Shown piece after piece: positions 5,206 to 31,327 of a DNA stretch of 64,000 bases. Location of the stretch: positions 186,001 through 250,000 of the forward strand of contig JANYHT010000029.1 in NCBI GenBank assembly GCA_025358925.1, given 5' to 3'. Below the pieces are notes generated by a model. The model was not told where the DNA came from. It searched no databases and saw only the letters and a program-made list of their open reading frames with translations. Source of the DNA: Gemmatimonadaceae bacterium (GTDB lineage Bacteria; Gemmatimonadota; Gemmatimonadetes; Gemmatimonadales; Gemmatimonadaceae). A program made the translations under genes and the position numbers. Every line of letters begins with the position of its first letter. Within the stretch, counting starts at the first letter, position 1.

Positions 5206-7512
5206 ATGCTCGAACGCCGGTTGATCGAGGTCGAAGGCACGGTGCAAGGCGTAGGGTTTCGACCCTACGTGCATCGGCTGGCGGCCGCGCGCAATTTGCG
5301 CGGGTTCGTACGAAATGACGCGGGCCGCGTGATGATTGATATTGAAGGCGAACTCGCGACAGTTGATGCCTTTTGTCGAGATCTCACGCTTGCGCCGCCA
5401 CCGCTGTCCGCAATTTCTCTCGTGCACGTCAAGCGCGCCGTGCCGATGCGCCGTCGCGCCTTTCAGATTCTCCCTAGCGGGACGAATGTAGGCGAAAGCG
5501 CGGCGGCCGCCGTTCCGCCGGATGTTGCCACGTGCGACGCGTGTGTGTCCGAATTGTTTGATGTGCACAACCGACGCTTTGGACACGCGTTCATTTCCTG
5601 CACAGACTGTGGTCCGCGATTCACCGCGATTCGCGAAGTGCCATATGATCGTGAACGCACCAACATGGCGCCGTTTGCACCGTGCACTGTTTGTCGCGCC
5701 GAGTACGAAACTTCGAGTGATCGTCGCTTCCACGCGGAGGCGATCGCGTGCCCGCGGTGTGGACCTGTGCTTGTGGCGCGGCGGGTGAATGACGACAACG
5801 TACAGGCCATTGGAGCAGCGGCGATCACGCTCGCAGCGGCGACCCTTCGGCGCGGTGGTATTGTCGCCCTTAAAGCGTTGGGCGGATTCCATCTTGCGTG
5901 CAGCGCGCTGGACGCGTTTGCAATCGCGCGGCTTCGGGAGCGAAAGCATCGTCCTGCAAAGCCGTTGGCCGTTATGGTGCGCGACGTTGCCGCAGCCACT
6001 GCGCTGTGCGACGTGTCCGTGGTTGAACAGTCGGCACTGACCGCATCGGCCCGCCCGGTGCTACTGCTCCGAGCGCGTGATAGTGCAGCGGTGGCAGCAT
6101 TGGTTGCGCCGCACACGGCGACGCTTGGACTTATGCTCCCTTCAACGCCGCTGCATCATCTCCTGCTCGCCGCGTTTAACGGTCCACTGGTGATGACGAG
6201 CGGTAACCGCAGTGATGAACCCGTTGCCATCACGGACGCGGATGCACATTCAATGTTAGAGGACGTCGCGGACGTATTCCTGACGCATGATCGAGCGATC
6301 GTCGCCCGCTGCGACGACAGCATCGTTCGCGTCATCGCTGGCGAACCGCGGGTGCTCAGGCGTGCACGCGGCTATGTGCCGAACATCATCGCCTTGCCAT
6401 TCCACGCTGCAGCGACTGTGCTTGCGGTGGGCGGTCACTTGAAGAATACAATCTGTGTCGCGCATGGCCGCTGCGCGCACCTGTCCGCGCACGTTGGAGA
6501 TCTCGGCAGCCTTGCGGCGCTGCGCGCCATGCGCGTCGCTGTGGCGAGCACGATCCATCTCGTTGGCGCGCGGCCACGCGTGATCGCACACGACTTGCAT
6601 CCAGATTATGCATCCACGCGTTTTGCGGAGTCCTTCGCGACCGACGAAGGCACCACACACCGCGTACCGGTGCAGCACCATCACGCGCATATTGCGGCGT
6701 GCGTCGCCGAACATGGCGTACGCGAGGCGGTGATTGGCGTCGTGTTTGACGGCGCAGGTCTCGGCACAGACGGCGCGATTTGGGGGGGGGAGTTTCTGGT
6801 CGTGGAAGGCGCGCATTTCACGCGATGTGGGCACCTTGCGTACGTGCCGCTTCCGGGTGGGGATGCTGCCGCACGTCATCCCTGGCGATCGGCGGCGGCA
6901 CATGTGGCGCGAGCAGATGTGAGTGGTACATCAGCCGCCAGCGCACGTCCCGCTTCGGTCGACGAACGCGAGTGGCAATTGGTGCAACAACTCGTGCAAA
7001 GACATCAGCGCACACCGCACACTTCGAGTGTTGGACGGTTGTTTGATGCCGTGGCGTCGTTGCTCAACCTCTGTCACGTCTCGCACTTCGAAGGCGAGGC
7101 GGCGATGGCGCTTGAAGCGGCGGCGGGCACGCGAGTCGCGCTGGGATATCCAATCAGTTTGAGCGCAGACCACTGTTTCACTGCCAACGCGGCACGCGTG
7201 ATCGCGGGTGTTCTTGATGATATGGAGCGCGGCCGCGATATCACAGACATTGCGGCTGCCTTTCATACCACGCTGCGGGATCTCATCGTGCTGGCTGCCG
7301 AACGAATACGGGAAGCATCAGGGATCAGTATTGTGGCACTTTCCGGCGGAGTATTCGCCAACGCGCGACTCACCGCCACCACCAACGCCGCTTTGCTCAC
7401 TCGACATTTTCGCGTTCTGATTCCGCAGCAGGTGCCGTGCAATGACGGCGGCCTTTCGTTGGGACAAGCGTTCGTCGCTGCCTGCGCACTACAGGAGCCA
7501 TTATGTGCTTAG
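5206..7512 (+). CDS. hypF: Carbamoyltransferase HypF
   Basis: HypF makes the cyanide ligands of the [NiFe] active site by transferring a carbamoyl group to the C-terminal Cys of HypE. The 768-residue protein has all expected parts in order: acylphosphatase domain (EGTVQGVGFRPYVHRLA), two zinc fingers (CDAC...CTDCGPRF and CTVC...CPRCGP), a YrdC-like domain (PLAVMVRDV), and a Kae1-like domain with the metal-binding motif VQHHHAHIAACVAEHG and a C-terminal PCNDGGLSLGQA. I prefer the ATG at 5206, with GAGG at 5193-5196, over the TTG at 5191. Its 3' end overlaps hypC by 10 bp. Confidence 0.97.
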   Translation: MLERRLIEVEGTVQGVGFRPYVHRLAAARNLRGFVRNDAGRVMIDIEGELATVDAFCRDLTLAPPPLSAISLVHVKRAVPMRRRAFQILPSGTNVGESAAAAVPPDVATCDACVSELFDVHNRRFGHAFISCTDCGPRFTAIREVPYDRERTNMAPFAPCTVCRAEYETSSDRRFHAEAIACPRCGPVLVARRVNDDNVQAIGAAAITLAAATLRRGGIVALKALGGFHLACSALDAFAIARLRERKHRPAKPLAVMVRDVAAATALCDVSVVEQSALTASARPVLLLRARDSAAVAALVAPHTATLGLMLPSTPLHHLLLAAFNGPLVMTSGNRSDEPVAITDADAHSMLEDVADVFLTHDRAIVARCDDSIVRVIAGEPRVLRRARGYVPNIIALPFHAAATVLAVGGHLKNTICVAHGRCAHLSAHVGDLGSLAALRAMRVAVASTIHLVGARPRVIAHDLHPDYASTRFAESFATDEGTTHRVPVQHHHAHIAACVAEHGVREAVIGVVFDGAGLGTDGAIWGGEFLVVEGAHFTRCGHLAYVPLPGGDAAARHPWRSAAAHVARADVSGTSAASARPASVDEREWQLVQQLVQRHQRTPHTSSVGRLFDAVASLLNLCHVSHFEGEAAMALEAAAGTRVALGYPISLSADHCFTANAARVIAGVLDDMERGRDITDIAAAFHTTLRDLIVLAAERIREASGISIVALSGGVFANARLTATTNAALLTRHFRVLIPQQVPCNDGGLSLGQAFVAACALQEPLCA

Positions 7513-7775
7513 GCGTGCCCGGACAAATCGTCGAATTTCTCGAGCCGACTCACCATCTCGCCAAGGCCGAGATTTCGGGTGTGCGTCGCGCCATTAACGT
7601 GGGGCTGCTCATTCCCGATGGACTTGAGATCGGGGACTGGGTGTTAATTCATGTCGGCTTTGCGCTCAGTAAAATTGATGAAGACGAAGCGCGTCGCACC
7701 CTCGAATTCCTCGAGCAACTCGGCTCTGATTTTGCTGAAGAGATGATTCTTATCGAGCGGAGTGATATCCAATGA
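7503..7775 (+). CDS. hypC: Hydrogenase maturation chaperone HypC
   Basis: A 90-residue HypC/HupF/HybG protein. It begins with the family signature MCLGVPGQIVEF, in which Cys2 is the residue that contacts HypD and the large-subunit precursor while the Fe(CN)2CO unit is assembled and passed on. The oligomer-binding fold continues with GDWVLIHVGFALSKID, also typical. It overlaps the end of hypF by 10 bp and the next SIS gene by 4 bp, so it is inside one transcript. Confidence 0.97.
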   Translation: MCLGVPGQIVEFLEPTHHLAKAEISGVRRAINVGLLIPDGLEIGDWVLIHVGFALSKIDEDEARRTLEFLEQLGSDFAEEMILIERSDIQ

Positions 7776-8368
7776 CGGCGGTGGTCGCGGTAGACGTGCC
7801 GGAGGACGTTCAATCAAGTGTCGCGGCGCGGCGCATCGCGGCATCAAACGAGGTCGCGGAACGATTCTTCCGCGATCACGCCGACGCCATTGCACAGACG
7901 TGCCAAGCGATGGCCGCACGGTTTGAGCGCGGCGGACGTCTGCTGATTTGTGGCGACGACGCGCAGCGCAGCGATGTCGCGCACGTTGTGGTTGAGTTTG
8001 TGCACCCGGTGGTTGTAGGAAAGCGCGCGCTCACCGCGCTTTCCCTCCCAGCCGTCGCGAACGGCGCGGCACAACGCGTGCTCTCGATCGTCCGACGCCC
8101 AGATGATATGCTGATGCTGCTGACGGCAGGTGCGCTCGACGGCCCCGCGCAGGCGCTGCTTGGGATGGCGCGCGACGCCGGTATGCTCACGCTCGCACTC
8201 ACCAGCGACGCCACGAATGCAGTGTCTCGTGCGACCGACGACCACGTCTTCGCGGTACCATCGACAGATCCGTACATCGTTCAGGAAACGCACGAGATGT
8301 TGTATCACGTTCTGTGGGAACTCGTGCACGTATTCTTTGATCATCGCCCTCGGAGTCGCAACACATGA
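7772..8368 (+). CDS. SIS-domain protein, phosphoheptose-isomerase-like (first copy)
   Basis: A 198-residue sugar isomerase (SIS) domain protein related to GmhA, which converts sedoheptulose 7-phosphate in LPS heptose synthesis. An acidic residue (VVEFVH) and a C-terminal QETHEMLYHVLWELVH helix are in the places of the GmhA catalytic Glu and His. However, the usual nucleotide/sugar-phosphate loop GNGGS is replaced by ICGDDAQRS, so isomerase activity is doubtful. It is locked between two hypC-like genes by ATGA overlaps, which points to a role in hydrogenase assembly or its control, not lipopolysaccharide synthesis. That role is unknown. Confidence 0.75.
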   Translation: MTAVVAVDVPEDVQSSVAARRIAASNEVAERFFRDHADAIAQTCQAMAARFERGGRLLICGDDAQRSDVAHVVVEFVHPVVVGKRALTALSLPAVANGAAQRVLSIVRRPDDMLMLLTAGALDGPAQALLGMARDAGMLTLALTSDATNAVSRATDDHVFAVPSTDPYIVQETHEMLYHVLWELVHVFFDHRPRSRNT

Positions 8369-8592
8369 AACGAGACGCGATTGAGTGTGCCCAACATGAC
8401 GAGCCATGTCACCTGTGCGGTGATGACGCAGTGGTGGGGCAGATACTGCAAGTAGACCTGATCAATCGGACCGCCTCCGTGCTGCTTGCCGACAGCACCG
8501 CCATTGTCGCGCTCGATTTCGTGGATGCCACGGTTGGCGATCGCGTGCTTGTGCACATGGGGTTCGCCATTGAAAAACTGGAATCAGCATGA
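8365..8592 (+). CDS. HypC-like protein lacking the N-terminal Met-Cys motif
   Basis: Seventy-five residues. The second half (GQILQVDLINRTASVLL, then GDRVLVHMGFAIEKLE) is a HypC/HupF oligomer-binding fold. The first part is not MCL-x-x-P but carries C8, H11, C15, H16 and C18 (DEPCHLCGDD), so the essential Cys2 of classic HypC is absent and a CHLC cluster takes its place. Similar short HypC-like proteins with a Cys-x-x-Cys start occur in group 1h hydrogenase operons (recalled family knowledge). It may act on a different partner or bind metal. Both ends overlap the SIS genes by 4 bp. Confidence 0.75.
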   Translation: MKRDAIECAQHDEPCHLCGDDAVVGQILQVDLINRTASVLLADSTAIVALDFVDATVGDRVLVHMGFAIEKLESA

Positions 8593-9278
8593 GCGTTGAT
8601 CGCGATTACGCGCGGGACCTGTATCCGTTTCTTTATGCGCCGAGTGATGAGTTCGCGGAGCACAGTACGGCGTTGCTCGCATCTGTGCGCAGTTCTACGC
8701 TCGCTAAATGCGCTGAGGTAACAGCGCTACGCACTGAATTGCTGATGGAATATGAAGCAGATCTCGAACGTGCCGCGGAGATGATGGCCGAACGATTTGC
8801 TCGTGGCGGAAAATTGTTGGCGTTCGGCAACGGCGGCAGTGCGACCGATGCGGATGACGCGGCGATGGATTGTCTGACACCGCTGCTCGCGGGCTGGCGT
8901 GCGTTGCCGGCGTGGTCGCTGCCAGCCGAGAGTGCGACCGTGACGGCGCTTGCGAATGATGTTGGTCCCGACCATGTGTTCACGCGACCGATCGCGGCGC
9001 TCGGTGAGCGTAACGACATCGCGTTGGGATTCTCGACCAGCGGGAGTTCGACGAATATCGTCACGGCGTTTGCCGAGGCCCGACGACGCGGCATGCTCAC
9101 GGTCGCATTCACCGGGTACGATGGTGGTGCGATCGCGCATGGCGGAAACGTGGATTTCTGTTTTATCGCGCGACGTGAGTTTGTGCCGCGTATTCAGGAG
9201 GGGCACGCAACGCTCTGGCACACTCTCTTGGAGTTGGTGCAGCAGCAACTGTCGCTCCTCGCGGAGCGTGCATCATGA
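8589..9278 (+). CDS. SIS-domain protein, phosphoheptose-isomerase-like (second copy)
   Basis: A 229-residue GmhA-like SIS protein that keeps the phosphate-binding loop LLAFGNGGSATDADDA and the second loop GFSTSGSSTNIV, but where GmhA has the catalytic Glu (HFAEEL) this protein has AAMDCL, so the normal heptose isomerase reaction may be lost. The C-terminal IQEGHATLWHTLLELV helix keeps the His. Paralogous to the SIS gene two positions upstream and closer to GmhA than that copy. Overlaps hypD by 4 bp. Why hydrogenase operons carry sugar-phosphate-binding proteins is not known to me. Confidence 0.78.
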   Translation: MSVDRDYARDLYPFLYAPSDEFAEHSTALLASVRSSTLAKCAEVTALRTELLMEYEADLERAAEMMAERFARGGKLLAFGNGGSATDADDAAMDCLTPLLAGWRALPAWSLPAESATVTALANDVGPDHVFTRPIAALGERNDIALGFSTSGSSTNIVTAFAEARRRGMLTVAFTGYDGGAIAHGGNVDFCFIARREFVPRIQEGHATLWHTLLELVQQQLSLLAERAS

Positions 9279-10420
9279 GCATGCGTTTCGTCGACGAATA
9301 CCGTGAGCCCGGTGGTATTGCCAAACTGAGCGCGGAGATTGAGCGGCTCGCGAAGGGACGACAAGTGAAGCTGATGGAGGTGTGCGGAGGCCATACGCAT
9401 GCCATCTATAAGCACGGCCTACAAGACTTGTTGCCGGAGAATGTGGAGCTCGTGCACGGCCCTGGGTGTCCCGTCTGTGTAATTCCGATGGGGCGCATCG
9501 ATGATGCGATTGCGATTGCGCATATGCCGGGTGTGATCTTCGCCACGTACGGCGACATGATGCGCGTGCCCAGTTCGACGGGAAGCTTGATTGATGCGAA
9601 GGCTGACGGCGCCGATGTGCGCTTTATCTATTCGCCACTCGACGCGCTTACCTTGGCACGGAAAAATCCAGACCGTGAGGTGGTGTTCTTCGCGGTGGGG
9701 TTTGAAACCACGGCGCCCTCAACGGCCGCGACGCTCCTTCGTGCGCGAGACGAGGGGTTAAAGAATTTTTCCGTGTTCTGCAACCACGTGACGATCATTC
9801 CGGCCATCAAGGCAATACTTGATTCGCCAGGAATGTCGTTGGACGGCTTTGTCGGTCCCGGGCACGTGGCGACGATTATTGGCGTGCGTCCGTTCGATTT
9901 TATTCCGCGCGAGTACGGACTGCCCATCGCGATAACGGGCTTCGAGCCATCGGACATCTTGCAATCGGTCGTGATGCTCTTGCGACAATTGACGGATGGT
10001 CCGGTGCGCGTGGAGAATCAGTATGCGCGTGTGGTGCGCGACGACGGCAACCGTCGAGCGCTGGAGATCCTCGCCGAAACGATGCAACTCCGACCATTTT
10101 TTGAGTGGCGTGGGCTTGGATTTATTTCGCAAAGCGCGTTGGCGATCCGTCCCGAATTTGCGCAGTTCGATGCGGAAGCGCGCTTCGCGGTGCCGAACGT
10201 TCGCGTAACTGATCCGAAAGCGTGCCAGTGTGGCGAAGTGCTGAAAGGCGCGATTAAACCGTGGCAATGTAAGGTGTTCGGAAACGCGTGTACGCCAGAA
10301 ACGCCGATCGGCTCCTGCATGGTGTCACCCGAGGGCGCGTGTGCCGCGTACTACAACTACGGTCGCTATTCACTCATGCGGCGTGGTGTCGCATCTGTGC
10401 AAGCGGCAGGTGTTCCGTGA
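9275..10420 (+). CDS. hypD: Hydrogenase maturation protein HypD
   Basis: HypD (381 residues) is the iron-sulfur scaffold on which, with HypC, the Fe(CN)2CO group is built. All family motifs are present: MEVCGGHTHAIYKHGLQDLL, GPGCPVCVIP, FAVGFETTAPSTAA, GPGHVATIIG, and the C-terminal [4Fe-4S] ligands in CQCGEVLKG, WQCKVFGNACTPETP and GSCMVSPEGACAAYY. The gene is coupled to its neighbours by ATGA overlaps on both sides, within the hyp operon. Confidence 0.98.
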   Translation: MSMRFVDEYREPGGIAKLSAEIERLAKGRQVKLMEVCGGHTHAIYKHGLQDLLPENVELVHGPGCPVCVIPMGRIDDAIAIAHMPGVIFATYGDMMRVPSSTGSLIDAKADGADVRFIYSPLDALTLARKNPDREVVFFAVGFETTAPSTAATLLRARDEGLKNFSVFCNHVTIIPAIKAILDSPGMSLDGFVGPGHVATIIGVRPFDFIPREYGLPIAITGFEPSDILQSVVMLLRQLTDGPVRVENQYARVVRDDGNRRALEILAETMQLRPFFEWRGLGFISQSALAIRPEFAQFDAEARFAVPNVRVTDPKACQCGEVLKGAIKPWQCKVFGNACTPETPIGSCMVSPEGACAAYYNYGRYSLMRRGVASVQAAGVP

Positions 10421-11523
10421 TGAGTAGTGGACGCATCGAGTTATCGCTGCCGACGCAACTCGATCGCATGGAGCGCGCACGCGTCGTGCGCGATGCAACG
10501 CCACGATTGCGCGATGAGCACGTCACGCTCAGTCACGGGAGCGGTGGTAAATCGAGTCGAGCGCTTATCGAATCGATCATTCTTCCGGCGTTTAACAACG
10601 CCTTGCTTGACGGAAGCGCGGACAGCGCGATACTACGCATGCCGAACGACAGCGAACGGATTGCGTTCACGACGGATAGCTATGTGGTGAGTCCGCTGTT
10701 TTTTCCGGGCGGTGACATCGGCAAGCTCGCTGTGAACGGCACGATTAACGATCTCGCCATGTCTGGCGCGCGGCCGCTGGCGTTGTCGGTGGGGCTCATT
10801 CTGGAAGAAGGGCTCGACATGGCCATCTTGCGTCGGGTAATTGCATCGATCGCGGCTGCGGCAGCGTTGGCCGGCGTCCCAATCGCGACGGGTGATACAA
10901 AAGTCGTACAGCGTGGGAAAGCCGACGGGCTCTTTATCAATACGAGTGGTGTCGGTGCCGTACCGAACCATTGTCGCCTTTCGATGGATCTCATCCAGCC
11001 AGGCGACGCAGTGCTCCTGAGTGGGTTCATCGGCGATCATGGCATGGCCGTAATGCTCGCACGTGAGGCCTTGGAACTGGATGCGGATATCGAAACCGAT
11101 AGCGCACCATTGCACGACCTCGTCGCGGACTTGTTAGCAGCCGCACCGGACACACGTACCATCAAAGATCCGACGCGCGGTGGTGTTGCCAGCACCCTCA
11201 ACGAAATTGCCTCGCGTACAAAACTTGCGATCAGCATTGACGAAGATCGCGTGCCCGTGCGGATCACGGTGCGTGGTGCGTGCGAGATTCTCGGGCTCGA
11301 GCCGCTGCATATCGCGAACGAAGGCAAGCTGGTGGCCATCGTCCCGCGCGTGCAAGCGGATGCAGCGTTGAGCGCATTGCGCAGACATGCGTTTGGTGCC
11401 GATGCGGCCATCATCGGTGAAATTCTGCGCGAGCCCGAAGGGATGGTGCTGTTACGTACCGGTATTGGAGGCTCACGCGTGCTGGACATGCTCGTGGGCG
11501 ATCCATTGCCGCGCATCTGTTAG
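10420..11523 (+). CDS. hypE: Hydrogenase maturation protein HypE
   Basis: HypE (367 residues) dehydrates the thiocarbamate on its C-terminal cysteine to thiocyanate using ATP. It is a PurM-like protein: VTLSHGSGGKSSRALIES near the N-terminus, GTINDLAMSGARPLALS, IATGDTKVVQRGKADGL, DPTRGGVASTLNEIA, and the invariant C-terminal PRIC. The start ATG at 10420 overlaps the hypD stop by 1 bp (TGATG context). A 31-bp gap with a strong GGAGG follows before the hydrogenase small subunit. Confidence 0.98.
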   Translation: MSSGRIELSLPTQLDRMERARVVRDATPRLRDEHVTLSHGSGGKSSRALIESIILPAFNNALLDGSADSAILRMPNDSERIAFTTDSYVVSPLFFPGGDIGKLAVNGTINDLAMSGARPLALSVGLILEEGLDMAILRRVIASIAAAAALAGVPIATGDTKVVQRGKADGLFINTSGVGAVPNHCRLSMDLIQPGDAVLLSGFIGDHGMAVMLAREALELDADIETDSAPLHDLVADLLAAAPDTRTIKDPTRGGVASTLNEIASRTKLAISIDEDRVPVRITVRGACEILGLEPLHIANEGKLVAIVPRVQADAALSALRRHAFGADAAIIGEILREPEGMVLLRTGIGGSRVLDMLVGDPLPRIC

Positions 11524-11554: not shown

Positions 11555-12838
11555 ATGACGACGGCAACAATCGAGACACGCGCGTCCGCACCCGCAACAC
11601 TTCCCAAAGAGAAACCCGAGCGACTTCCGCTGGGCCCCCTGAAAACCATTCACGTATTTTGGATGGCGGGTATGAGTTGCGACGGTTGCACCATCACTGT
11701 TGCTGGCGCAACCAATCCAGGAATTGAAGGATTGTTGAATGGCACCGTACCCGCGATGCCAAAAGTATTGTTGCACCATCCGGTGCTTTCAGTTGAAGCC
11801 GGTGCGGAATTCATGGCATCATTTAAAAAGGCACATGACGGCACGCTAGGCGATCCGTACGTGGTGGTTTTTGAAGGGTCGGTGCCAGACGAGCGCATCG
11901 CCGCGCGCACCGGTGGTTACTGGTCGGCGATGGGCTCGGAGCTGATGCCTGGCGAAGCGGAGGGGGGCGAAACGCGCATGGTGCCAACAGCGGAATGGTT
12001 AAGCCGACTCGCGCCCGGCGCAGCTGCCATGATTGCGATTGGTACGTGCGCAACGTGGGGCGGTATTCCGTCGGCGGAAGGCAATCCAACAAACGCAATG
12101 AGCGTGATGGATTTCCTCGGCAAGGACTTCCGGAGCGCGTTCGGTCTGCCGGTCATCAACATTCCGGGATGTGCGCCACAAGGTGACAATTTCACCGAAA
12201 CAGTGTTCGCCATTTTGCTTTTCCTGCAGGGGCTTGGCCCGCTGCCCGCGTTTGACGAATTAGGACGTCCGTCTTGGTTGTACGGCGAAACGGTGCATCG
12301 CGGGTGTACGCGCGCGGGCTACTACGAAGAAGGCGTGTTCGCGAAAGAGTACGGCGATCCGGAATGTTTGGTCGAAATCGGATGCTGGGGACCGGTGGTG
12401 AATTGCAACATTGTGAAACGCGGCGCGATCAATCACATGGGTGGGTGCATGGAGGCCGGAGGTGTGTGCATTGCCTGCACGATGCCCGGTTTTCCTGACA
12501 AATTTTCGCCGTTCTACAAAGCACCACCGGGCGGAATTATTTCCACCACGATGTCGCACGGTGTGGGCGGCGTCATTCGTCGACTGCGTCGCCTGAGCAA
12601 TCGTCATGCAAGCCGCGAACATCGGTGGGATGTGAATAACGATGTGCCAAGCGGTTGGGCGCACGTTCCAGGCTCATCGATGGGGCTCAAGGTGATGGAA
12701 CTCTTCTATCAGAAGTGGCAGCACTGGGGAGCGCGTCAACCCGGACGGCGGAAGGGCGAGGAAGCATGGTTGTGGGGTGGAACGCGTCCGGGTCAACCAA
12801 GCGACTATAACGATCATAGTGTTTCGGAGGGGAAATGA
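11555..12838 (+). CDS. hhyS: [NiFe] hydrogenase small subunit, group 1h (HhyS)
   Basis: The 427-residue electron-transfer subunit, carrying three iron-sulfur clusters from the NiFe site to the acceptor. No Tat signal is present, as expected for actinobacterial-type (group 1h/5) enzymes. Cluster motifs: MAGMSCDGCTITV near residues 37-49 with Asp43 between the cysteines, GTCATWGG, NIPGCAPQGDN, HRGCTRAGYYEEG with C-x5-C-x5-C downstream, and GGVCIACTMPGFPDKF. In the structurally known R. eutropha homologue the proximal cluster is held by three Cys and one Asp; Asp43 here fits that. Start ATG at 11555 has GGAGG at 11540-11544. Confidence 0.95.
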   Translation: MTTATIETRASAPATLPKEKPERLPLGPLKTIHVFWMAGMSCDGCTITVAGATNPGIEGLLNGTVPAMPKVLLHHPVLSVEAGAEFMASFKKAHDGTLGDPYVVVFEGSVPDERIAARTGGYWSAMGSELMPGEAEGGETRMVPTAEWLSRLAPGAAAMIAIGTCATWGGIPSAEGNPTNAMSVMDFLGKDFRSAFGLPVINIPGCAPQGDNFTETVFAILLFLQGLGPLPAFDELGRPSWLYGETVHRGCTRAGYYEEGVFAKEYGDPECLVEIGCWGPVVNCNIVKRGAINHMGGCMEAGGVCIACTMPGFPDKFSPFYKAPPGGIISTTMSHGVGGVIRRLRRLSNRHASREHRWDVNNDVPSGWAHVPGSSMGLKVMELFYQKWQHWGARQPGRRKGEEAWLWGGTRPGQPSDYNDHSVSEGK

Positions 12839-13128
12839 CCGACGCCGAACTTTGGTCCGCTTGGCGCATGTGGATGGTGCTGGCCACGGTCGTCATTTTG
12901 GTTGCTGCCGTACTCCTGGTCGCCATATGGCAAACCGCGCGCGGTATTTATCGCGAGGCGCTCCGCGCACTGAGTGCCGCGGATAAAATTCGCGAAAATA
13001 CGAACCCGATTTGGGCGCTGAAGACGACGAACGAAGTGGCCACATCTATGTTAGAAACCGTGCAGCATATCGAGCAAGACGGCGGTGCGTTGGCAGCCGC
13101 TCTCCAGTCACACGCAGGCGCTCACTAA
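12835..13128 (+). CDS. Small single-pass membrane protein 1 of the hydrogenase locus
   Basis: Ninety-seven residues. One transmembrane helix (about residues 13-32), then a basic/amphipathic helix (ARGIYREALRALSAADKI), then ENTNPIWALKTTNEV and a final helix. ATGA overlap with the small-subunit stop and a GGAGGGG before the ATG show tight coupling. It is the first of five proteins with the same plan lying between the two hydrogenase subunits. I recognise no named family. The shared pattern is [NH]-T-x-x-[IL]-x-x-L-x-x-T after the first amphipathic helix. Likely a membrane anchor or quinone-access subunit, by analogy with the HucM stalk of another hydrogenase; inference only. Confidence 0.85.
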   Translation: MTDAELWSAWRMWMVLATVVILVAAVLLVAIWQTARGIYREALRALSAADKIRENTNPIWALKTTNEVATSMLETVQHIEQDGGALAAALQSHAGAH

Positions 13129-13140
13129 CTCCCTCTCACT

Positions 13141-13485
13141 ATGCAAACGTCAATTTCGATGCCCACTGCTGAGGCGATCCAAAACGTCTGGACGGTGTCG
13201 CTGGCGGTGTTTGTTGTTGTGTTGATCGTCGTCGCCACACTGTTGACGCTGATCTTGCGCACCGCTCATGACATCAAGGCTGGTGTCGCCATTATCTGGA
13301 ACGTGGGACAACGCATCGCGAATAACACCATTCAACTCGCGATGTTAGCCAAAACGAACGCCGCCTCGCAGCAGATTCTGACATCGGCGGTTGGCGTTAT
13401 TGGCGCGACCGCTGCAATCACGACGCATGCCGAGTCGTGCCCGGGTTGTCCGGCGTGCGTGCTTGGCCAGCGGTGGCAACGATGA
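13141..13485 (+). CDS. Small single-pass membrane protein 2, with C-terminal Cys-rich motif
   Basis: A 114-residue protein of the same plan as its four neighbours: transmembrane helix (about residues 21-40), amphipathic helix, then ANNTIQLAMLAKTN and a second helix. It differs by ending in ESCPGCPACVLGQ, three cysteines spaced C-x2-C-x2-C (residues 100, 103, 106), which could bind a metal or an iron-sulfur cluster or be lipidated. Overlaps the next gene by 4 bp. Function unknown; position between hydrogenase subunits suggests an accessory role in electron transfer or membrane attachment. Confidence 0.85.
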   Translation: MQTSISMPTAEAIQNVWTVSLAVFVVVLIVVATLLTLILRTAHDIKAGVAIIWNVGQRIANNTIQLAMLAKTNAASQQILTSAVGVIGATAAITTHAESCPGCPACVLGQRWQR

Positions 13486-13799
13486 ACGTCTTTACGTTGC
13501 TCATGCTGCTCTCGGTGGTGGGCGCTGCTGCGCTCTTCATCGCGCTCGCGATTTTTCTCTTCGCGATCGCTGGGCAGCTCGAAAAAATTGGCGGCGAGGA
13601 GAAGGGGTACGGGGTAGCAGCCAGCTACCTGTCAAAAATCCGCATGGGCTTACGTGCGATTGAGGTCGAGACCGGGATGATTGCACCGCAGGTCACGCAG
13701 CTCAATACCACGCTCACCAGCGTGCGTGATGGCCTGATTGTGGTTGACGCAAATCTGGGCGCACTCATTGCTGCCGTGTCGCGACAGGTGGTGCTATGA
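13482..13799 (+). CDS. Small single-pass membrane protein 3 of the hydrogenase locus
   Basis: A 105-residue protein starting at the ATG overlapping the previous stop (ATGA). The N-terminus itself is the transmembrane helix (about residues 3-30, VFTLLMLLSVVGAAALFIA), followed by GQLEKIGGEEKGYGV and a long helix with IAPQVTQLNTTLTSV, the most divergent version of the shared [NH]-T-x-x-[IL]-x-x-L motif. No known domain recognised. Coupled to both neighbours by 4-bp overlaps. Confidence 0.83.
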   Translation: MNVFTLLMLLSVVGAAALFIALAIFLFAIAGQLEKIGGEEKGYGVAASYLSKIRMGLRAIEVETGMIAPQVTQLNTTLTSVRDGLIVVDANLGALIAAVSRQVVL

Positions 13800-14098
13800 C
13801 CGAACCACTCATGCCACCCGCTTTATACGTGATTTGGTGGGTCGGGCTCATCGTGACGCTGGTCGTGTTTGTTCCTCTCTCCGTGTATTTGCTGCATCGC
13901 ACATTCATGGCATCCCGCTCCATTCGACGGTACGCCGACGAAGCGCTGACTGCCGCCGCAGGCATTGCGGGCAACACGAAATACATCCCCGCGCTCGATA
14001 GCACGATCGCCGTCGGCAGCGCGATGGTTGGCGTCGCCGGACACATCAGCGCGAAGCTCGACACGGCCGCGACCGTGCTCGCGCAACGCACGGAGTGA
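13796..14098 (+). CDS. Small single-pass membrane protein 4 of the hydrogenase locus
   Basis: A 100-residue protein with one transmembrane helix (about residues 11-33), a basic stretch (RTFMASRSIRRYADEA), then AGNTKYIPALDSTIAV carrying the shared motif, and a final helix. Same architecture as the other four proteins of the cluster, which suggests they arose by tandem duplication and could form a hetero-oligomeric membrane assembly. ATGA overlap upstream, GTGA overlap downstream. Confidence 0.83.
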   Translation: MTEPLMPPALYVIWWVGLIVTLVVFVPLSVYLLHRTFMASRSIRRYADEALTAAAGIAGNTKYIPALDSTIAVGSAMVGVAGHISAKLDTAATVLAQRTE

Positions 14099-14373
14099 AA
14101 GAAACGACCATGCTGCAAACACTCACGCTTATCACCGTCGCCCTCGTAGTCCTGGCGCTCGCAGGGTATCTCATCGCGATCGTGGTGCAACTCGCGGCCG
14201 CGAGAAAAAGCATTGCGGCCATTGCGAATGGACTTGAAGCGGTCGCGGGACACACTGCTCCACTTCCGGAAAAACTCACTACGATCAACGGCGCACTTGT
14301 GCAGTTGCTCGCGGGCCTTACAACCGCCGATCACCATCTCGGACGCGTTGCCACCATCTTCAAACTCGGCTAG
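14095..14373 (+). CDS. Small single-pass membrane protein 5 of the hydrogenase locus
   Basis: Ninety-two residues from the GTG at 14095 (GTGA overlap with the previous gene); an ATG at 14110 is an alternative giving 87 residues. Transmembrane helix (about residues 10-32), then AARKSIAAIANGLEAVAGH, the shared motif as HTAPLPEKLTTINGAL, and a last helix. Ends 3 bp before the large-subunit gene. No recognised family. Fifth and last member of the tandem set. Confidence 0.83.
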   Translation: MKETTMLQTLTLITVALVVLALAGYLIAIVVQLAAARKSIAAIANGLEAVAGHTAPLPEKLTTINGALVQLLAGLTTADHHLGRVATIFKLG

Positions 14374-14376
14374 CCC

Positions 14377-16275
14377 ATGTGCTTTAAGAACCTTCCGATC
14401 GAGTTCGACGCGCAGGGCAAAGCCTTTCTCAAAGATGGCGCGGCCAATCCGTACAGCACCGCAGTTGCGGCCCCGCCCGGTGTGCCAAAGCAGCTGGATC
14501 ACGATAAAGTGTTGGAGTTGGTCAAGCGCAACGGACACATCAAAGACGTGGATTATGATCCCGTCACACGCGTCGCTGGCGCACTGGCGTTTCACACCGT
14601 GACCGATGTCCGTGAACGCAAAGTGTTGGAGGCTCGATCCGTCGCCACGCTGTTTCGTGGGTACGAAGTGATCATGATTGGCCGAGACCCACGCGATGCG
14701 ATTTACATCACCAGCCGCGCGTGTGGCGTGTGTGGCGGCGTGCACTCCACATGCTCCGCACTCGCTATCGAAATGGCTATCGGCTGTCAGCCGCCGCCGT
14801 TGGGCGTACTCATTCGTAACATCGCGTTAGCGCTCGAGTTTCTGTACGATCACCCGCTACATCTGCACTTGCTGGCTGGTCCCGATTACTCGGCGGCAAT
14901 CGTTGAGGGCACCAACCCTGGTCTGCTTGATCGTGCGCGCACGACGCCAGCGAAATACGCAGAAGTGCATGGATATCGCACGATGTTTGACCTCATGACG
15001 GATCTCAATCCGTTAAGCGGTAACCTGTATCTCGAAGCGCTTGGTATGACACGCGTTGCGCGTGAAGCGTACGTGCTGATTTGTGGCAAGTATCCGCATC
15101 CGCAAACCATCGTGCCCGGCGGCATGAGCTCGACCATCAACCTCACGGTGATGAACGAGATGTACGTGCGCTTAAGTCAGTTTTTTGACTACGGCAAAAA
15201 GATTGCGCGCATTTGGGATGACATTACCGAGTTTTTTTACGACGCAGATCCGAAGTACAAACTGGTCGGCTCGCGGCGCGCGAACATGATCGACACTGGC
15301 ATCTTCGACGTTCCAGAGGCGTACGACACGACGTACAAAAATTGCACGTCGTGGGGCGACAAACGCTGGGCAACACCAGGAGCCATTGTTGACGGCGTGT
15401 TAGTGACGACCGATTTGCAGAAGATCAACATGGGCATCGAAGAGTTTGTCGAACATTCGTATTACGATGAGTGGACCGGCAGCGGACAAACGTCACACTT
15501 CCCCACCGATCCAGCAGGACATCCGCTGTCGCCATATCACCCGTGGAACAAGGTCACAAAGCCGAAGCCGGGTGCCCAGAGTTGGAAAGAGAAATACACA
15601 TGGGACACGGCACCGCGCTGGGATCGGTTGGGTATGGAAGCGGGTTGCTACGCGCGCATGTGGAATACGGCTGTCGCCCAGAAACACCCGGAAAATCCAT
15701 TCATCGAAGCCACGGGACACTCACTCAAAGTGCGCTTACCACGTGGCAAGCTTCCCGAGACAGAAATCGAATGGCATGTGCCCGACGTGTGGAACGCGTT
15801 CGAGCGCAACCGCTCACGGGCGTACTGTGTCGGGTACACGGCAATGATCGCGATGAACAACTGGATGGCCGCGATGGATCGTCTGAAAGACGGCGATACA
15901 AAAACGTCCACAAAGTTTGACATGCCCAAGCGCGGTGAGCAAATGGGTGTTGGCTTTTGGGGTGCAGGACGCGGCTATCTCACGCATCACCTCGTGCTCG
16001 ACCGTGGCGCGGTCTCGAACTACCAAATTGTCACGCCCTCCACATGGAACGCGTCGCCGACTGATCGTTGGGGACAACCGGGGCCGTACGAAGAGGCGGT
16101 GATGAACACGCCGCTGTTGGAGGAGTCGACCGATCCGGCAAAGTTTCGCGGCATTGATATTCTGCGTGCGATTCGAAGCTTCGATCCCTGCATGCCGTGT
16201 ACCACGCACATTCAGTCGGAAGCAGGAATGATTACGCGCGAAGTCAACACGTGCGCGTGCGGGTTAGACGACTAG
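14377..16275 (+). CDS. hhyL: [NiFe] hydrogenase large subunit, group 1h (HhyL)
   Basis: The 632-residue catalytic subunit. The four active-site cysteines lie in the L1 motif SRACGVCGGVHSTCSALAIE (about residues 112-131) and the L2 motif FDPCMPCTTHI near the C-terminus. The N-terminal IEFDAQGKAFLKDG, RVAGALAFHTV and ATLFRGYEVIMIGRDPRDA blocks match actinobacterial-type high-affinity enzymes able to oxidise atmospheric H2 (family knowledge). After L2 come about 21 residues ending NTCACGLDD, which in this class include an extra Cys-x-Cys and may be cleaved during maturation. The first residues MCFKNLP also carry a Cys2. Confidence 0.96.
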   Translation: MCFKNLPIEFDAQGKAFLKDGAANPYSTAVAAPPGVPKQLDHDKVLELVKRNGHIKDVDYDPVTRVAGALAFHTVTDVRERKVLEARSVATLFRGYEVIMIGRDPRDAIYITSRACGVCGGVHSTCSALAIEMAIGCQPPPLGVLIRNIALALEFLYDHPLHLHLLAGPDYSAAIVEGTNPGLLDRARTTPAKYAEVHGYRTMFDLMTDLNPLSGNLYLEALGMTRVAREAYVLICGKYPHPQTIVPGGMSSTINLTVMNEMYVRLSQFFDYGKKIARIWDDITEFFYDADPKYKLVGSRRANMIDTGIFDVPEAYDTTYKNCTSWGDKRWATPGAIVDGVLVTTDLQKINMGIEEFVEHSYYDEWTGSGQTSHFPTDPAGHPLSPYHPWNKVTKPKPGAQSWKEKYTWDTAPRWDRLGMEAGCYARMWNTAVAQKHPENPFIEATGHSLKVRLPRGKLPETEIEWHVPDVWNAFERNRSRAYCVGYTAMIAMNNWMAAMDRLKDGDTKTSTKFDMPKRGEQMGVGFWGAGRGYLTHHLVLDRGAVSNYQIVTPSTWNASPTDRWGQPGPYEEAVMNTPLLEESTDPAKFRGIDILRAIRSFDPCMPCTTHIQSEAGMITREVNTCACGLDD

Positions 16276-16279
16276 CGCG

Positions 16280-16897
16280 ATGACAAGCACGTTCGTGACG
16301 AGTTCGTCAACCACGCCGTTACATGCCATGCGAGTGGTGATCGGCGGCGTGGGCTATCGCAATCTCCGCGACCACTCGCTTGGCATCGTCATGAGCGACG
16401 AGCTGGAGGCACTGGCACGGCCGCCGGCGCTGCTCGTCGAAGATTTGTGCTACGGACCCGTGGCCGTCGCACAGTGGTTTCTCGATGAAGCACTGTCGTC
16501 GCCAATCACCCGCGCAATCTTCATCACGGCCATTAGTCGCGATGATGGTCGCCCGCCAGGCACGATCTGCGCCTATCGATGGGATCATACGCTCCCATCG
16601 ACGGACGAAATTCAGCGATGCGTCGTTGACGCTGTCACGGGTGTCATTTTTCTCGATAACACCCTCATCGTCGTCGAGTGGATGCAGGCGCTGCCCAGCG
16701 AAACCATCGTGATTGAGGTTGAACCGTTGGAGCATGCCTTCGGTGATGAGATGAGCCCAGGTGTCGTTGCGGCGTACGCGGAAGTGCGACGCTTGGCACT
16801 ACATTTTGCGACCGATCATGCCGCAGGATTGGCACTGCCGGTACATGGGCTTGGCGGTGGATGGATGCCGAACACGTCGTCGCTGTTCAGCGCGTGA
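16280..16897 (+). CDS. Hydrogenase maturation-protease-like protein, non-canonical
   Basis: A 205-residue protein whose N-terminal part, VVIGGVGYRNLRDHSLGIV and LLVEDLCYGPVAVAQWFLDE, resembles the HupD/HyaD/HybD fold. The canonical GxGNxxxxDDGxG nickel-sensing motif is changed: no Asn-x3-Asp-Asp/Glu pair is present. Such proteins accompany group 1h hydrogenases (recalled from comparable operons). A catalytically altered protease, a chaperone, or a protease with a different metal site are all possible. It starts 4 bp after the large subunit, so it is co-transcribed. The ATG is followed by a non-conserved 14-residue stretch; an ATG at 16328 is an alternative start. Confidence 0.75.
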   Translation: MTSTFVTSSSTTPLHAMRVVIGGVGYRNLRDHSLGIVMSDELEALARPPALLVEDLCYGPVAVAQWFLDEALSSPITRAIFITAISRDDGRPPGTICAYRWDHTLPSTDEIQRCVVDAVTGVIFLDNTLIVVEWMQALPSETIVIEVEPLEHAFGDEMSPGVVAAYAEVRRLALHFATDHAAGLALPVHGLGGGWMPNTSSLFSA

Positions 16898-17823
16898 TGG
16901 CCGAGCATGACGCGCCGCTCGGCGACGTAGGCACCGACGTCGAAACGACTGATCTGCTGCTCGAGGTCGAAGCAATCATCGAACGGCTAACTGCGCATCC
17001 AGATCCGTCGGTTGGTGCGAGTGTTGCTGTGTTGCTGGAACGAATCGATACCGTCCATCGCACTGCACTAACGCATCTGATGGGCGCCATTCAATCCATG
17101 GCGGGCGACGCGTTCATCAATCGCCTGACGGGTGATGCGGCGATTCGGCTGCTCCTCATGTCGTATGATTTGCTTGCCGTGGATCGACGCACGCTTGCGG
17201 AAGAAGCGCTGGATGCGGTGCGCAGTCATCTTCATGCGCACGGCACCGATGTTGAACTTGTCGACGTACTCGGTGGAGTGATCGCCGTCCGCATTCATGG
17301 GGTCGACCCATCCGATGCAGCGTATGCGGGAATTGTGCAGGACATCAACGAAGCGCTTCGTGTCGGCCTGTTAGGCTTCCAAGAACTTGAGGTGCGCGTT
17401 GGCAAAGGCGCGCGGCCCGTATCAGCGGAATCGCAATTCTTTCCGATTGCATCGCTGCAGCGCGCGTTTCGACCGGTGTATCGCGATGTGTGTCGTGCGG
17501 ATGATCTGGCATCAGGCACAATGCGCGGAGTGATCGTTGACGGTGAAGCGGTGTTAGTGGTGCGCGTGGCGGAGGAGTACTTTGCGCTGCGAAACGCGTG
17601 CGGAGAAAGTCCGCTTCCGCTGGACTACAGTACACTCACGGGCGTTTCGCTGAAGTGTAGTTGGCACGGGTGCGTGTATGATGTACGCACGGGGCATCGT
17701 TTGGATCGGGCCGATGCAACGCGCGAAGACGCCATCAGTGTCCTGCCGGTGCGCGTTACCGAAGGCGTCGTGCAAGTGGTGGTAGGAACGACGCAGGCGA
17801 CACCAGCGGTCGTGCCCAGATGA
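16894..17823 (+). CDS. NifU-like/Rieske-like protein of the hydrogenase locus
   Basis: About 309 residues. The middle resembles the NifU C-terminal fold (AEEALDAVRSHLHAHGTDVELVD region, without the usual Cys-x-x-Cys). The C-terminal 100 residues follow a Rieske fold: RNACGESPLPLD, LKCSWHGCVYDVRTG. The second ligand loop is normal (C-x-x-H, codons 17656-17667), but the first, usually Cys-x-His, is CGE (Cys at 17599). An extra Cys follows the His (WHGC). Rieske-type proteins of group 1h operons are thought to accept electrons from the small subunit. Start chosen for the GTGA overlap; ATG 16897 and 16861 are alternatives. Confidence 0.82.
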   Translation: MMAEHDAPLGDVGTDVETTDLLLEVEAIIERLTAHPDPSVGASVAVLLERIDTVHRTALTHLMGAIQSMAGDAFINRLTGDAAIRLLLMSYDLLAVDRRTLAEEALDAVRSHLHAHGTDVELVDVLGGVIAVRIHGVDPSDAAYAGIVQDINEALRVGLLGFQELEVRVGKGARPVSAESQFFPIASLQRAFRPVYRDVCRADDLASGTMRGVIVDGEAVLVVRVAEEYFALRNACGESPLPLDYSTLTGVSLKCSWHGCVYDVRTGHRLDRADATREDAISVLPVRVTEGVVQVVVGTTQATPAVVPR

Positions 17824-18269
17824 CGCGTACACTCATCGCCGGTTTTGGCAATGTGTTGCGCGGCGACGACGGGTTTGGCGTTGCCGTCTTGCAGCGGCTC
17901 GCCGAACGCGGCACCGCGAGCGATACGGTGGAGCTGCTCGACGTCGGCACCGGTGGCATACGACTCGCGCAGGAACTTATTACTCCGTACGATCGACTCA
18001 TCATTATTGACGCAACGACGCGAGGTGGCGTGCCGGGATCCGTGTATACGCTCGTCGTCGATGGCGTGCGCAGTACGAACGAGATCGACATGCATACCAC
18101 CGTGCCGTCGCGCGCACTCGAAGTGGCGCAAGCCCTCGGACCACTGCCGCCACAGATTTATATGGTTGGTTGCGAGCCTGCGATCGTTGACGAGTGGACG
18201 ATGGAGTTGAGTCCTGCGGTCGCGAGTGCGGTTGACCGGGCCGTCCGTGAGATCGAGCAACTATTGTGA
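17820..18269 (+). CDS. Hydrogenase maturation protease, HupD/HyaD family
   Basis: A 149-residue endopeptidase of the HyaD/HybD/HupD family that cuts off the large-subunit C-terminal tail after nickel has been inserted. It carries the signature IAGFGNVLRGDDGFGVAVLQ with acidic residues at 16-17 in the place of the metal-binding Glu16 of HybD, then LLDVGTGGIRLAQELI, and IDMHTTVPS supplying the metal-binding His. This canonical copy, not the 16280 gene, is the better candidate for processing HhyL. ATGA overlap upstream, GTGA overlap downstream. Confidence 0.93.
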   Translation: MTRTLIAGFGNVLRGDDGFGVAVLQRLAERGTASDTVELLDVGTGGIRLAQELITPYDRLIIIDATTRGGVPGSVYTLVVDGVRSTNEIDMHTTVPSRALEVAQALGPLPPQIYMVGCEPAIVDEWTMELSPAVASAVDRAVREIEQLL

Positions 18270-18646
18270 CGGATAGCAACGGAGGAGACGCGATCGCACG
18301 CGAGGATGAGTTGCTCGAACTGTTGTATTGGTTCGAGGGCGAAGGGTTTGGAGGCGTGGCATCGCTCGCGAGTATCACCAGATTCACGTCGATTGCAGAA
18401 GCCGTAGTGCAGAGCACGCTGCAGCGGCTGATGACGCGCGGCGACGTGATCCTCGACAGCGCCGCGGGCGGCGAGTATCGTCTCACGGAGCCTGGACGTC
18501 GCGAGGCGGCCCAACGCTTCGCCGCCGAGTTTGCGCCCATGCTCAGTCAGGGGCATGGCGAGTGTAGCGATCCGAATTGCGATTGCCATACGAGCGAGGG
18601 TGGCGCGGCCGAGTGCCACGCCCGACACCACGATCACAAGCATTGA
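18266..18646 (+). CDS. Winged-helix protein with Cys/His-rich metal-binding tail
   Basis: A 126-residue protein. The first 90 residues look like a winged-helix DNA-binding domain (ELLYWFEGEGFGGVAS, VVQSTLQRLMTRGDV, YRLTEPGRREAAQRF). The tail, about residues 95-126, is dense in Cys and His (GECSDPNCDCHTSEG and ECHARHHDHKH), a good nickel or zinc site. HypA, which normally brings nickel, is missing here, so this protein could be a nickel sensor or a nickel carrier. It starts at a GTG overlapping the preceding protease stop by 4 bp. I recognise no named family. Confidence 0.75.
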   Translation: MTDSNGGDAIAREDELLELLYWFEGEGFGGVASLASITRFTSIAEAVVQSTLQRLMTRGDVILDSAAGGEYRLTEPGRREAAQRFAAEFAPMLSQGHGECSDPNCDCHTSEGGAAECHARHHDHKH

Positions 18647-18703: not shown

Positions 18704-19495
18704 ATGCGCATCGCGATTGCTGGAAAGGGCGGTACGGGAAAGACCACGATTTCTGGCACACTCGCGCGCGCACTCGCGCGGCGGACAGATCGCGAAGTGC
18801 TCGCGATCGATGCAGATACCAATCCCAATCTCGCAAGCGTCCTCGGGATCTCGCGTGAGCGGGCGGAAGAAATTGTCACCATGCCGCGAAATTTGATGGA
18901 GCGCCGCACGTTGGAGGACGGCTCCGTGAAGCAGTTTTTCACCGCGAATGCGCAAGCGGTGGTTGAGGAGTTTGGCGTGGTAGGACCCGATGGTGTTCGG
19001 CTGATGGTCATGGGGAAAGTGGGGCACGCGGGCTCAGGATGTTTATGCGGCGCCCACGCATCGGTGCGTGGATTTCTCGGTGAAATTGCATCGCGTGATG
19101 ACAATGATCGACATGTTATTGTCGACATGGAGGCGGGACTTGAGCACTTGAGCCGTGGAACCGGTCGTCATGTGTCGCGCATCGTTGCCGTACTTGAGCC
19201 GTATTACCGCTCGATGGAAACAGCGCGCAATGTAGTCTCGTTGGCGCATGATCTCGGGATTACCGATGTGGTGGTCGTCGCGAATAAAGTGCGTGACGAT
19301 GGTGATCGGGCAGCTATTGCCGATTTTTGTCGGGCACACCAGATGGTGCTTGTCGGTGAAGTGCCGTTCGACAGCGAGCTCGCGGCCGCAGAACGCAGTG
19401 GTGGTGCGCCCATTGATGTTGCGCCAAACTCGCCGGCGGTGAAGGCCATCGAAGCGCTCGTTGCAACGTTATTGAGTGACGACGTCGCCCACTAA
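18704..19495 (+). CDS. CooC-like P-loop ATPase, nickel-insertion type
   Basis: A 263-residue MinD/Mrp-superfamily ATPase: deviant Walker A GKGGTGKTTISG at residues 7-18, IDADTNPNLAS, and a Walker B region VIVDMEAGLEHL. In the middle is GHAGSGCLCGAHASV, the Cys-x-Cys that in CooC of carbon monoxide dehydrogenase systems binds nickel at the dimer interface. No carbon monoxide dehydrogenase genes are nearby, so here it probably serves the hydrogenase, in place of the GTPase HypB that is not found in the window. It is the last gene of the plus-strand locus, 57 bp after the winged-helix gene. Confidence 0.88.
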   Translation: MRIAIAGKGGTGKTTISGTLARALARRTDREVLAIDADTNPNLASVLGISRERAEEIVTMPRNLMERRTLEDGSVKQFFTANAQAVVEEFGVVGPDGVRLMVMGKVGHAGSGCLCGAHASVRGFLGEIASRDDNDRHVIVDMEAGLEHLSRGTGRHVSRIVAVLEPYYRSMETARNVVSLAHDLGITDVVVVANKVRDDGDRAAIADFCRAHQMVLVGEVPFDSELAAAERSGGAPIDVAPNSPAVKAIEALVATLLSDDVAH

Positions 19496-22122: not shown

Positions 22123-22521
22123 CTATCGCGGCGCGGTGAATCCTTTCTCTCGCAACAACACGCGATCAAACGTTGCGACACTCTCGCACATCGCCGCGCG
22201 GGCATGTTCGCGGATGAGATAGTCGGCGAAATCTCCCTTGCCCGATTCGTATGAATCGAGCGCGCGAATCAGTCGGTCGGTCGCGGAAAACATAAGATGA
22301 CGCGCACGAAATAATTCGCGAAGCACTGCCGCAATTTTCGTTCGTGCCACGCGGTAACTGACGCCTAACACCCACACGGTTTCGCAGACCACAATATCGG
22401 AAATGAATAGCGCTTCGTGATGCGCAATCGCGCGCTCAATGAGCGCCGCTGCCGCCGCGCTCTGCTTAACGTCGTCCTCGACCAAGTAGCGTATGAGCAC
22501 GTTGGTGTCGAGCGCGATCAC
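22123..22521 (-). CDS. vapC: PIN-domain toxin, VapC type
   Basis: A 132-residue PIN-domain ribonuclease. The acidic residues expected for Mg2+ coordination are in place: MIALDTNVLIRYLVEDD at the N-terminus, VCETVWVLGVSY, and KGDFADYLIREHARA, with a further Asp in SVATFDRVL near the end. VapC toxins cut tRNA or rRNA and are held inactive by the antitoxin encoded upstream. Overlaps the antitoxin gene by 4 bp, standard for these modules. Confidence 0.93.
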   Translation of the reverse strand: MIALDTNVLIRYLVEDDVKQSAAAAALIERAIAHHEALFISDIVVCETVWVLGVSYRVARTKIAAVLRELFRARHLMFSATDRLIRALDSYESGKGDFADYLIREHARAAMCESVATFDRVLLREKGFTAPR

Positions 22522-22795: not shown

Positions 22796-22940
22796 GCGAA
22801 CGTGCGCTTGTCAAATTAACGCCTCCCGACCCGCTGTTGGAACGCCTCCGGTCCCTGCGCTCAACTTCCTGCGACATTGTGACTTGACTCCGCTTTTGCT
22901 TGGCAGCACGTTCACAAATGTGATCGTAAACCCACCAGCC

Positions 22941-23306: not shown

Positions 23307-23308
23307 CG

Positions 23309-24303: not shown

Positions 24304-24306
24304 TCG

Positions 24307-31321: not shown

Positions 31322-31327
31322 GCAACG

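What the first reader, a model, noticed from the sequence alone, without database searches (positions are those of the whole stretch)
12835..14373. Five tandem paralogous small membrane proteins between the hydrogenase small and large subunit genes
Between hhyS and hhyL lie five genes (97, 114, 105, 100 and about 92 residues), each with one transmembrane helix, an amphipathic helix, and a shared motif approximating [NH]-T-x-x-[IL]-x-x-L-x-x-T. In most group 1h loci I know (for example mycobacteria) the two subunits are adjacent. HhySL has no Tat signal and no cytochrome b, and how it reaches the membrane and quinone is a real gap; the group 2a enzyme uses HucM to form a membrane stalk. Five tandem proteins could build a hetero-oligomeric anchor or quinone conduit. 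The cluster looks like an accessory module for this hydrogenase that I cannot match to a described family.
Basis: partly seen in the sequence, partly recalled or inferred. Interest (0 to 1): 0.88.

Follow-up and report, generated by a model that had tools for sequence, protein, structure and literature searches.

The report
Membrane anchor set of group 1l hydrogenase
The five small membrane-protein genes are real and are the already published HylTM1-5 set of the group 1l hydrogenase, which scavenges hydrogen from air; the comparison here adds that the same five, in fixed order, also occur in a sister enzyme (group 1m) and look like a helical stalk tying the soluble enzyme to the membrane.

Summary
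Five short genes (97, 114, 105, 100 and 87-92 aa) do lie between the hydrogenase small and large subunit genes. Each has one N-terminal transmembrane helix followed by a long amphipathic helix. This is not a group 1h (Hhy) locus: the small subunit has CDGC where all nine 1h-type loci compared have CDGD, and the large subunit is only about 41% identical to 1h enzymes. [quoted passage not shown] So the feature is known, here in a Gemmatimonadota genome.

New here, from sequence comparison: the five are homologous, in two classes ordered A-A-B-A-B. They are five separate orthologues (80/80 leave-one-out assignments). They co-occur with 1l/1m hydrogenases, not 1h. Clusters with group 1m hallmarks keep the set, moved to 3+2 positions flanking adjacent subunit genes. 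All five carry a significant heptad repeat after the membrane helix, and TM1 is predicted as one 93-residue helix.

Best reading (inferred): a heteromeric membrane-anchored coiled-coil stalk docking cytoplasmic HylSL, possibly a quinone conduit like the HucM tube. No complex was modelled.

The parts
5206..7512 (+). hypF, maturation carbamoyltransferase
   Evidence: Pfam HypF_C_2 5e-78
7503..7775 (+). hypC
   Evidence: Pfam HupF_HypC 7e-25
7772..8368 (+). SIS-domain-like protein
   Evidence: Pfam SIS_2 3e-4, below cut-off
8365..8592 (+). second, divergent hypC
   Evidence: Pfam HupF_HypC 5.5e-9
8589..9278 (+). SIS-domain protein
   Evidence: Pfam SIS_2 2.8e-20
9275..10420 (+). hypD
   Evidence: Pfam HypD 3e-155
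10402..11523 (+). hypE-like (AIRS domains)
   Evidence: Pfam AIRS and AIRS_C, about 1e-24
11555..12838 (+). hylS, [NiFe]-hydrogenase small subunit, group 1l type: CDGC proximal-cluster motif, no Tat signal seen by eye, C-terminal extension with predicted helix about residues 376-389
   Evidence: Pfam 3e-22; CDGC vs CDGD; invariant Y385; AF2 with modest confidence
12835..13128 (+). HylTM1 (class A), 97 aa
   Evidence: AF2 single helix 3-95, pLDDT 92.8
13141..13485 (+). HylTM2 (class A), 114 aa, with C-terminal H-A-x2-C-P-x-C-P-x-C motif
13482..13799 (+). HylTM3 (class B), 105 aa
13796..14098 (+). HylTM4 (class A), 100 aa
14110..14373 (+). HylTM5 (class B), 87 aa from ATG 14110 (GTG 14095 gives 92 aa)
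14377..16275 (+). hylL, [NiFe]-hydrogenase large subunit
   Evidence: Pfam NiFeSe_Hases 3e-78; tree
16280..16897 (+). hydrogenase maturation protease-like protein
   Evidence: TIGR00072 2e-6, below cut-off; no Pfam match
16861..17823 (+). NifU-like plus Rieske fusion protein, candidate electron-transfer or Fe-S partner
   Evidence: Pfam Rieske 2.7e-9, NifU 2.5e-5
17820..18269 (+). HycI-type hydrogenase maturation protease
   Evidence: Pfam HycI 5.6e-25
18266..18646 (+). conserved protein of the cluster, relative in the Pseudonocardia cluster
   Evidence: tblastn 1.7e-17 with L045 gene; no Pfam match
18704..19495 (+). CooC/MinD-type ATPase
   Evidence: Pfam CbiA 2e-17

Best explanation
The locus is a group 1l [NiFe]-hydrogenase cluster, and the five genes are its HylTM1-5 subunits. 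HylSL is cytoplasmic. Each HylTM spans the membrane once near its N-terminus and sends a continuous helix of about 60 residues into the cytoplasm. The five different helices pack, one or more copies of each, into a membrane-rooted coiled-coil bundle that docks HylSL, most plausibly at the small subunit. The bundle anchors the soluble enzyme and brings it to the quinone pool, perhaps with a hydrophobic interior that lets quinone reach the distal Fe-S cluster, as the HucM tube is proposed to do in Huc. Shown by sequence comparison: five separate orthologues, homology, co-occurrence, heptad periodicity, charge bias. Predicted: single long helix (TM1 only). Inferred and untested: docking to HylS, stoichiometry, barrel, quinone transport.
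For: Published precedent for five HylTM in group 1l. Each profile assigns the right slot in 80/80 leave-one-out tests, so five distinct subunits are maintained. Two classes in the order A-A-B-A-B. When hylS and hylL are adjacent, five are still kept, as three upstream plus two downstream in 12 loci and as 3+2 in two further genomes. Co-occurrence with 1l/1m but not 1h. More Lys/Arg after than before the membrane helix in 255 of 270 proteins, 5 the other way: C-terminus cytoplasmic, the side of a hydrogenase without Tat signal. Hydrophobic period 3.4-3.5 residues after the membrane helix in all five families, p 0.004 or less. AF2: TM1 one helix 3-95, pLDDT 92.8. The profile's best solved-structure matches are designed coiled-coil bundles and barrels: pattern likeness, not kinship. 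HucM: coiled-coil tube, quinone carried 94 A.
Against: No complex was predicted and no interface with HylS tested. AF2 easily draws lone long helices, and pTM is only 0.45. Three haloarchaeal genomes hold a related large subunit but no detectable HylTM, so the enzyme may function without them or with undetected ones. HylTM have no detected sequence match to HucM, and HucM is described as peripherally associated with the membrane. The members carry no conserved cofactor ligands except the lineage-specific TM2 Cys motif. Thermomicrobia have four, not five.
Confidence: 0.55

Rival explanations
1. Anchor only: the five proteins hold HylSL at the membrane, but electrons leave through another carrier such as the NifU-Rieske protein encoded at 16861-17823, and no quinone passes through the helices.
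For: The NifU-Rieske gene lies directly downstream; NifU or NifU-Rieske relatives follow most of the 1l and 1h loci examined. Mycobacterial work reports that putative Fe-S proteins are required for H2 consumption (PMC6883350, title and abstract). No conserved quinone-binding signature was found in HylTM.
Against: A pure anchor would hardly need five distinct, separately conserved orthologues.
Confidence: 0.3
2. The HylTM proteins are assembly or targeting factors (for maturation, oligomerisation or placement in the cell) and not stable subunits of the working enzyme.
For: They sit in a cluster rich in maturation genes and can move away from hylSL in the cluster.
Against: In 16 loci they lie between the two structural genes, a usual place for subunits; five fixed orthologues suggest a built structure.
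Confidence: 0.12
3. In the Gemmatimonadota/Acidobacteriota branch, HylTM2 carries an extra metal site (H plus three C) at the membrane-distal end of the stalk that relays electrons or clamps HylSL. This is an addition to the main reading and not exclusive of it.
For: H-A-x2-4-C-P-x-C-P-x-C or a close variant is present in the HylTM2 proteins of that branch and in one Chloroflexota relative, L023.
Against: Absent from the other lineages; the Rubrobacter proteins stop after one Cys or lack it. The Cys may bind zinc, form disulfides or do nothing redox.
Confidence: 0.15

Closest known systems
Group 1l [NiFe]-hydrogenase (HylSL) with HylTM1-5 (Ortiz et al. 2021; described in PMC9561532)
   Same: Five short single-helix proteins between small and large subunit genes.
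   Different: Nothing in the layout. The published reference sequences (for example the Bacteroidota isolate) were not reached, so direct clustering with them is untested.
Group 1m [NiFe]-hydrogenase (HhmSL; PMC9561532)
   Same: Loci with its hallmark genes have a related large subunit (about 55% identical); the two small membrane proteins correspond to HylTM4 and HylTM5, and three more relatives lie upstream.
   Different: Subunit genes adjacent; extra TPR, BirA-like and DUF1059 genes that the window lacks.
Group 1h [NiFe]-hydrogenase (Hhy; C. necator HofKG, PDB 5AA5)
   Same: Closest solved homologue; high-affinity enzyme class.
   Different: Adjacent subunit genes, CDGD motif, DUF5947 and DUF6084 neighbours, no HylTM.
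HucM of group 2a Huc
   Same: Membrane-associated coiled-coil stalk proposed to conduct quinone; a functional likeness.
   Different: One protein, four copies, peripheral; no HucM chain is among the 60 best matches of the HylTM profile in the PDB.

Membership tests
Group 1l [NiFe]-hydrogenase cluster | Five short transmembrane proteins between small and large subunit genes | tested here: met
Group 1l [NiFe]-hydrogenase cluster | Large subunit in a clade apart from group 1h | tested here: met
   Tree with four named and five further 1h-type rows as outgroup
Group 1l [NiFe]-hydrogenase cluster | Large subunit groups with published 1l reference sequences | not tested
   No Bacteroidota 1l sequence was reached in the collections used; Solirubrobacteraceae and Acidimicrobiales, taxa reported with 1l, fall inside the same large clade
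Group 1h [NiFe]-hydrogenase | Adjacent hhyS and hhyL | tested here: not met
   1539-base gap holding five genes
Group 1h [NiFe]-hydrogenase | CDGD motif with Asp at the proximal cluster | tested here: not met
   CDGC in the window and in its relatives with the region readable; CDGD in all nine 1h-type loci
Group 1h [NiFe]-hydrogenase | DUF5947 and DUF6084 genes downstream | tested here: not met
   Present in four named 1h loci; not found by Pfam in the window cluster
Group 1m [NiFe]-hydrogenase | Adjacent subunit genes; TPR, BirA-like and DUF1059 genes | tested here: not met
HucM stalk family | Sequence homology to HucM | tested here: inconclusive
   No HucM chain among the 60 best of 76 PDB matches at E up to 1; direct alignment not done
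HucM stalk family | Forms an oligomeric coiled-coil tube holding quinone | not testable with these tools
   Only natural single chains can be folded; heptad pattern is consistent

The most novel reading that the evidence does not exclude
HylTM1-5 form an obligate hetero-oligomeric, membrane-spanning helical barrel built from two paralogous helix types. It feeds quinone to a cytoplasmic hydrogenase in groups 1l and 1m, convergent with the HucM homotetramer, and in one branch it gained an extra metal site in HylTM2.
Probability: 0.25. Interest if true: 0.82.

Novelty: new member of a known kind. Interest (0 to 1): 0.5.

Why it matters
How high-affinity hydrogenases without a membrane subunit pass electrons from air-level H2 to quinone is solved only for Huc. 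The HylTM set is a concrete, genetically linked candidate answer for groups 1l and 1m, which are abundant in desert and Antarctic soils. The finding that clusters with 1m hallmarks keep the same five relatives in other positions suggests one shared mechanism and gives a clear test.

Tried and rejected
Group 1h assignment: rejected (tree). Known Pfam or NCBIfam family for the HylTM proteins: none above cut-off; weak DUF948, DUF4381 and FtsL matches are membrane-plus-coiled-coil likeness. A 204-aa A-B fusion in L072 looked like evidence of contact, but that contig also has a broken hylS, so a frame error is likely. A HylTM hit in G084 is an RmuC-like protein by eye. Long repetitive ORFs in L062 and L089 are weak false matches. 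The ORF between subunits in the haloarchaeal loci is the start of hylL, not a HylTM. The founding 1l paper (Ortiz 2021) is not held. AF2 of HylS was of low quality in its second half. Foldseek was not run on the TM1 model because a single helix gives meaningless matches.

Full report
What is there. The five ORFs are as described, between hylS (11555-12838) and hylL (14377-16275) in a complete hydrogenase cluster from hypF (5206) to a CooC-like ATPase (19495). The genome is a 4.0 Mb assembly, and the nearest named relative is a Gemmatimonadaceae MAG, 90% identical in HylL.

Which hydrogenase. The closest solved homologues are HofG/HofK of Cupriavidus necator, PDB 5AA5, but the large subunit is only about 41% identical to C. 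necator, Mycobacterium, Streptomyces and Methylocystis 1h enzymes. All nine 1h-type small subunits read CDGD; the window and its relatives read CDGC. In a tree with the nine 1h-type rows as outgroup, the window lies in a separate clade of 72 rows, next to Gemmatimonadota and Acidobacteriota. [quoted passage not shown] 2021 (PMC9561532). The match of layout is exact. No published 1l reference sequence was available to place in the tree.

One family, five slots. Iterated profiles started from each of the five converge on one set. Profile-profile comparison gives two classes, {1,2,4} and {3,5}, each at 98-99% probability, linked by 1-5 at 93%. In 16 loci with five interposed genes, position-specific profiles assigned every protein to its right slot in leave-one-out tests, 80 of 80: five old, separately conserved subunits. 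In the own genome the family profile finds only these five strongly.

Rearranged sets. In most actinobacterial loci hylS and hylL are adjacent, but the relatives are nearby: three on the opposite strand upstream and two downstream. In 12 loci both parts are visible; the slot calls read exactly 1-2-3 and 4-5 in seven, and the other five differ by calls between like-class slots (2/4, 3/5), except one near-tie in L064. Haloechinothrix (L052) and a Nocardioidaceae MAG (L059) show 3+2 only when the whole genome is searched. Two such loci carry the hallmarks given for group 1m: L073 has NifU, HycI, TPR, BPL_C and DUF1059 by Pfam, and L045 has similar ORFs. The two small membrane proteins reported for 1m therefore very probably correspond to HylTM4 and HylTM5, and 1m shares the whole set. 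I did not find this stated in the papers I could read; only one relevant paper in the library mentions group 1m. Thermomicrobia have four interposed, and Solirubrobacteraceae have five downstream.

Co-occurrence. In 298 Gemmatimonadota genomes the family passes E 1e-6 in eight. Six hold the 1l large subunit; one (G091) has a contig ending in hylS-TM1-TM2-part of TM3; one (G084) is a false match that reads like RmuC. Four genomes with only a 1h-type enzyme have none. In 115 Geodermatophilaceae, all five genomes with a near-identical large subunit have the family; the sixth positive (G380) holds a partial cluster with TM4, TM5, DUF1059, NifU and CooC-like genes; 12 genomes with only a more distant (about 40%) large subunit have none. 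Of 12 genomes with a 1l/1m-type large subunit searched whole, nine bacterial ones have the family and three haloarchaeal ones do not.

Anatomy and mechanism. 255 of 270 family members have more Lys/Arg in the 15 residues after the membrane helix than before it, so the long tail should face the cytoplasm, where a hydrogenase without Tat signal would be. AlphaFold2 on 116 sequences gives TM1 as one helix from 3 to 95 (pLDDT 92.8, pTM 0.45). After the membrane segment the hydrophobicity of the family repeats at 103-105 degrees per residue, the signature of a left-handed coiled coil (p 0.001 or less against shuffles over the post-membrane stretches tested, and p 0.004 or less in each of the five families); the membrane segment itself shows no such signal. 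The profile's best matches among solved structures are designed coiled-coil bundles and barrels. This is pattern likeness in low-complexity sequences, not kinship. About 60 residues of helix span roughly 90 A (my arithmetic at 1.5 A per residue); Huc carries quinone 94 A from the membrane through the HucM coiled-coil tube. HylS has a C-terminal extension with an invariant Tyr385 and a weakly predicted helix 376-389, a candidate docking site. A stalk that anchors HylSL is thus the best reading, and a quinone conduit a plausible further step; neither was tested.

A lineage detail. HylTM2 ends in H-A-x2-4-C-P-x-C-P-x-C (with small variants) in the Gemmatimonadota/Acidobacteriota branch and in one Chloroflexota relative; Rubrobacter proteins stop after one Cys or lack it, and the others lack it. 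It would sit at the membrane-distal end of the stalk. A metal site is possible but unproven.

Verdict. What I add is the orthology, the link to 1m, the co-occurrence counts, the coiled-coil pattern and the TM2 motif, which make the open question of how these enzymes reach quinone directly testable.

Noticed in passing
window 13420-13480 (HylTM2 C-terminus): H-A-E-S-C-P-G-C-P-A-C, a possible metal-binding motif confined to one branch of the family.
   Followed up: partly
window 16861-17823: NifU-like plus Rieske domain fusion directly downstream of the hydrogenase genes; candidate electron or Fe-S partner.
   Followed up: partly
window 22920-36175: What reads like a complex I (nuo) operon a few kilobases downstream; nuoA-D genes also follow the 1h cluster on a Mycobacterium intracellulare plasmid (L095). 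Window genes named by eye only.
   Followed up: no
window 7503-9278: Two hypC genes alternate with two SIS-domain-like genes inside the maturation operon; a SIS-domain gene is also next to hypC in the C. necator 1h cluster (L096).
   Followed up: no
L078, L079, L081: Haloarchaeal relatives (51-52% in HylL) with CDGC small subunits, an extended hylL start and no HylTM found in the genome.
   Followed up: partly
L062 and L063: Thermoleophilaceae cluster with four HylTM relatives upstream and three to five more downstream, a possible enlarged set.
   Followed up: no
window 22123-22757: What reads by eye like a PIN-domain toxin and AbrB-type antitoxin pair near the hydrogenase region.
   Followed up: no
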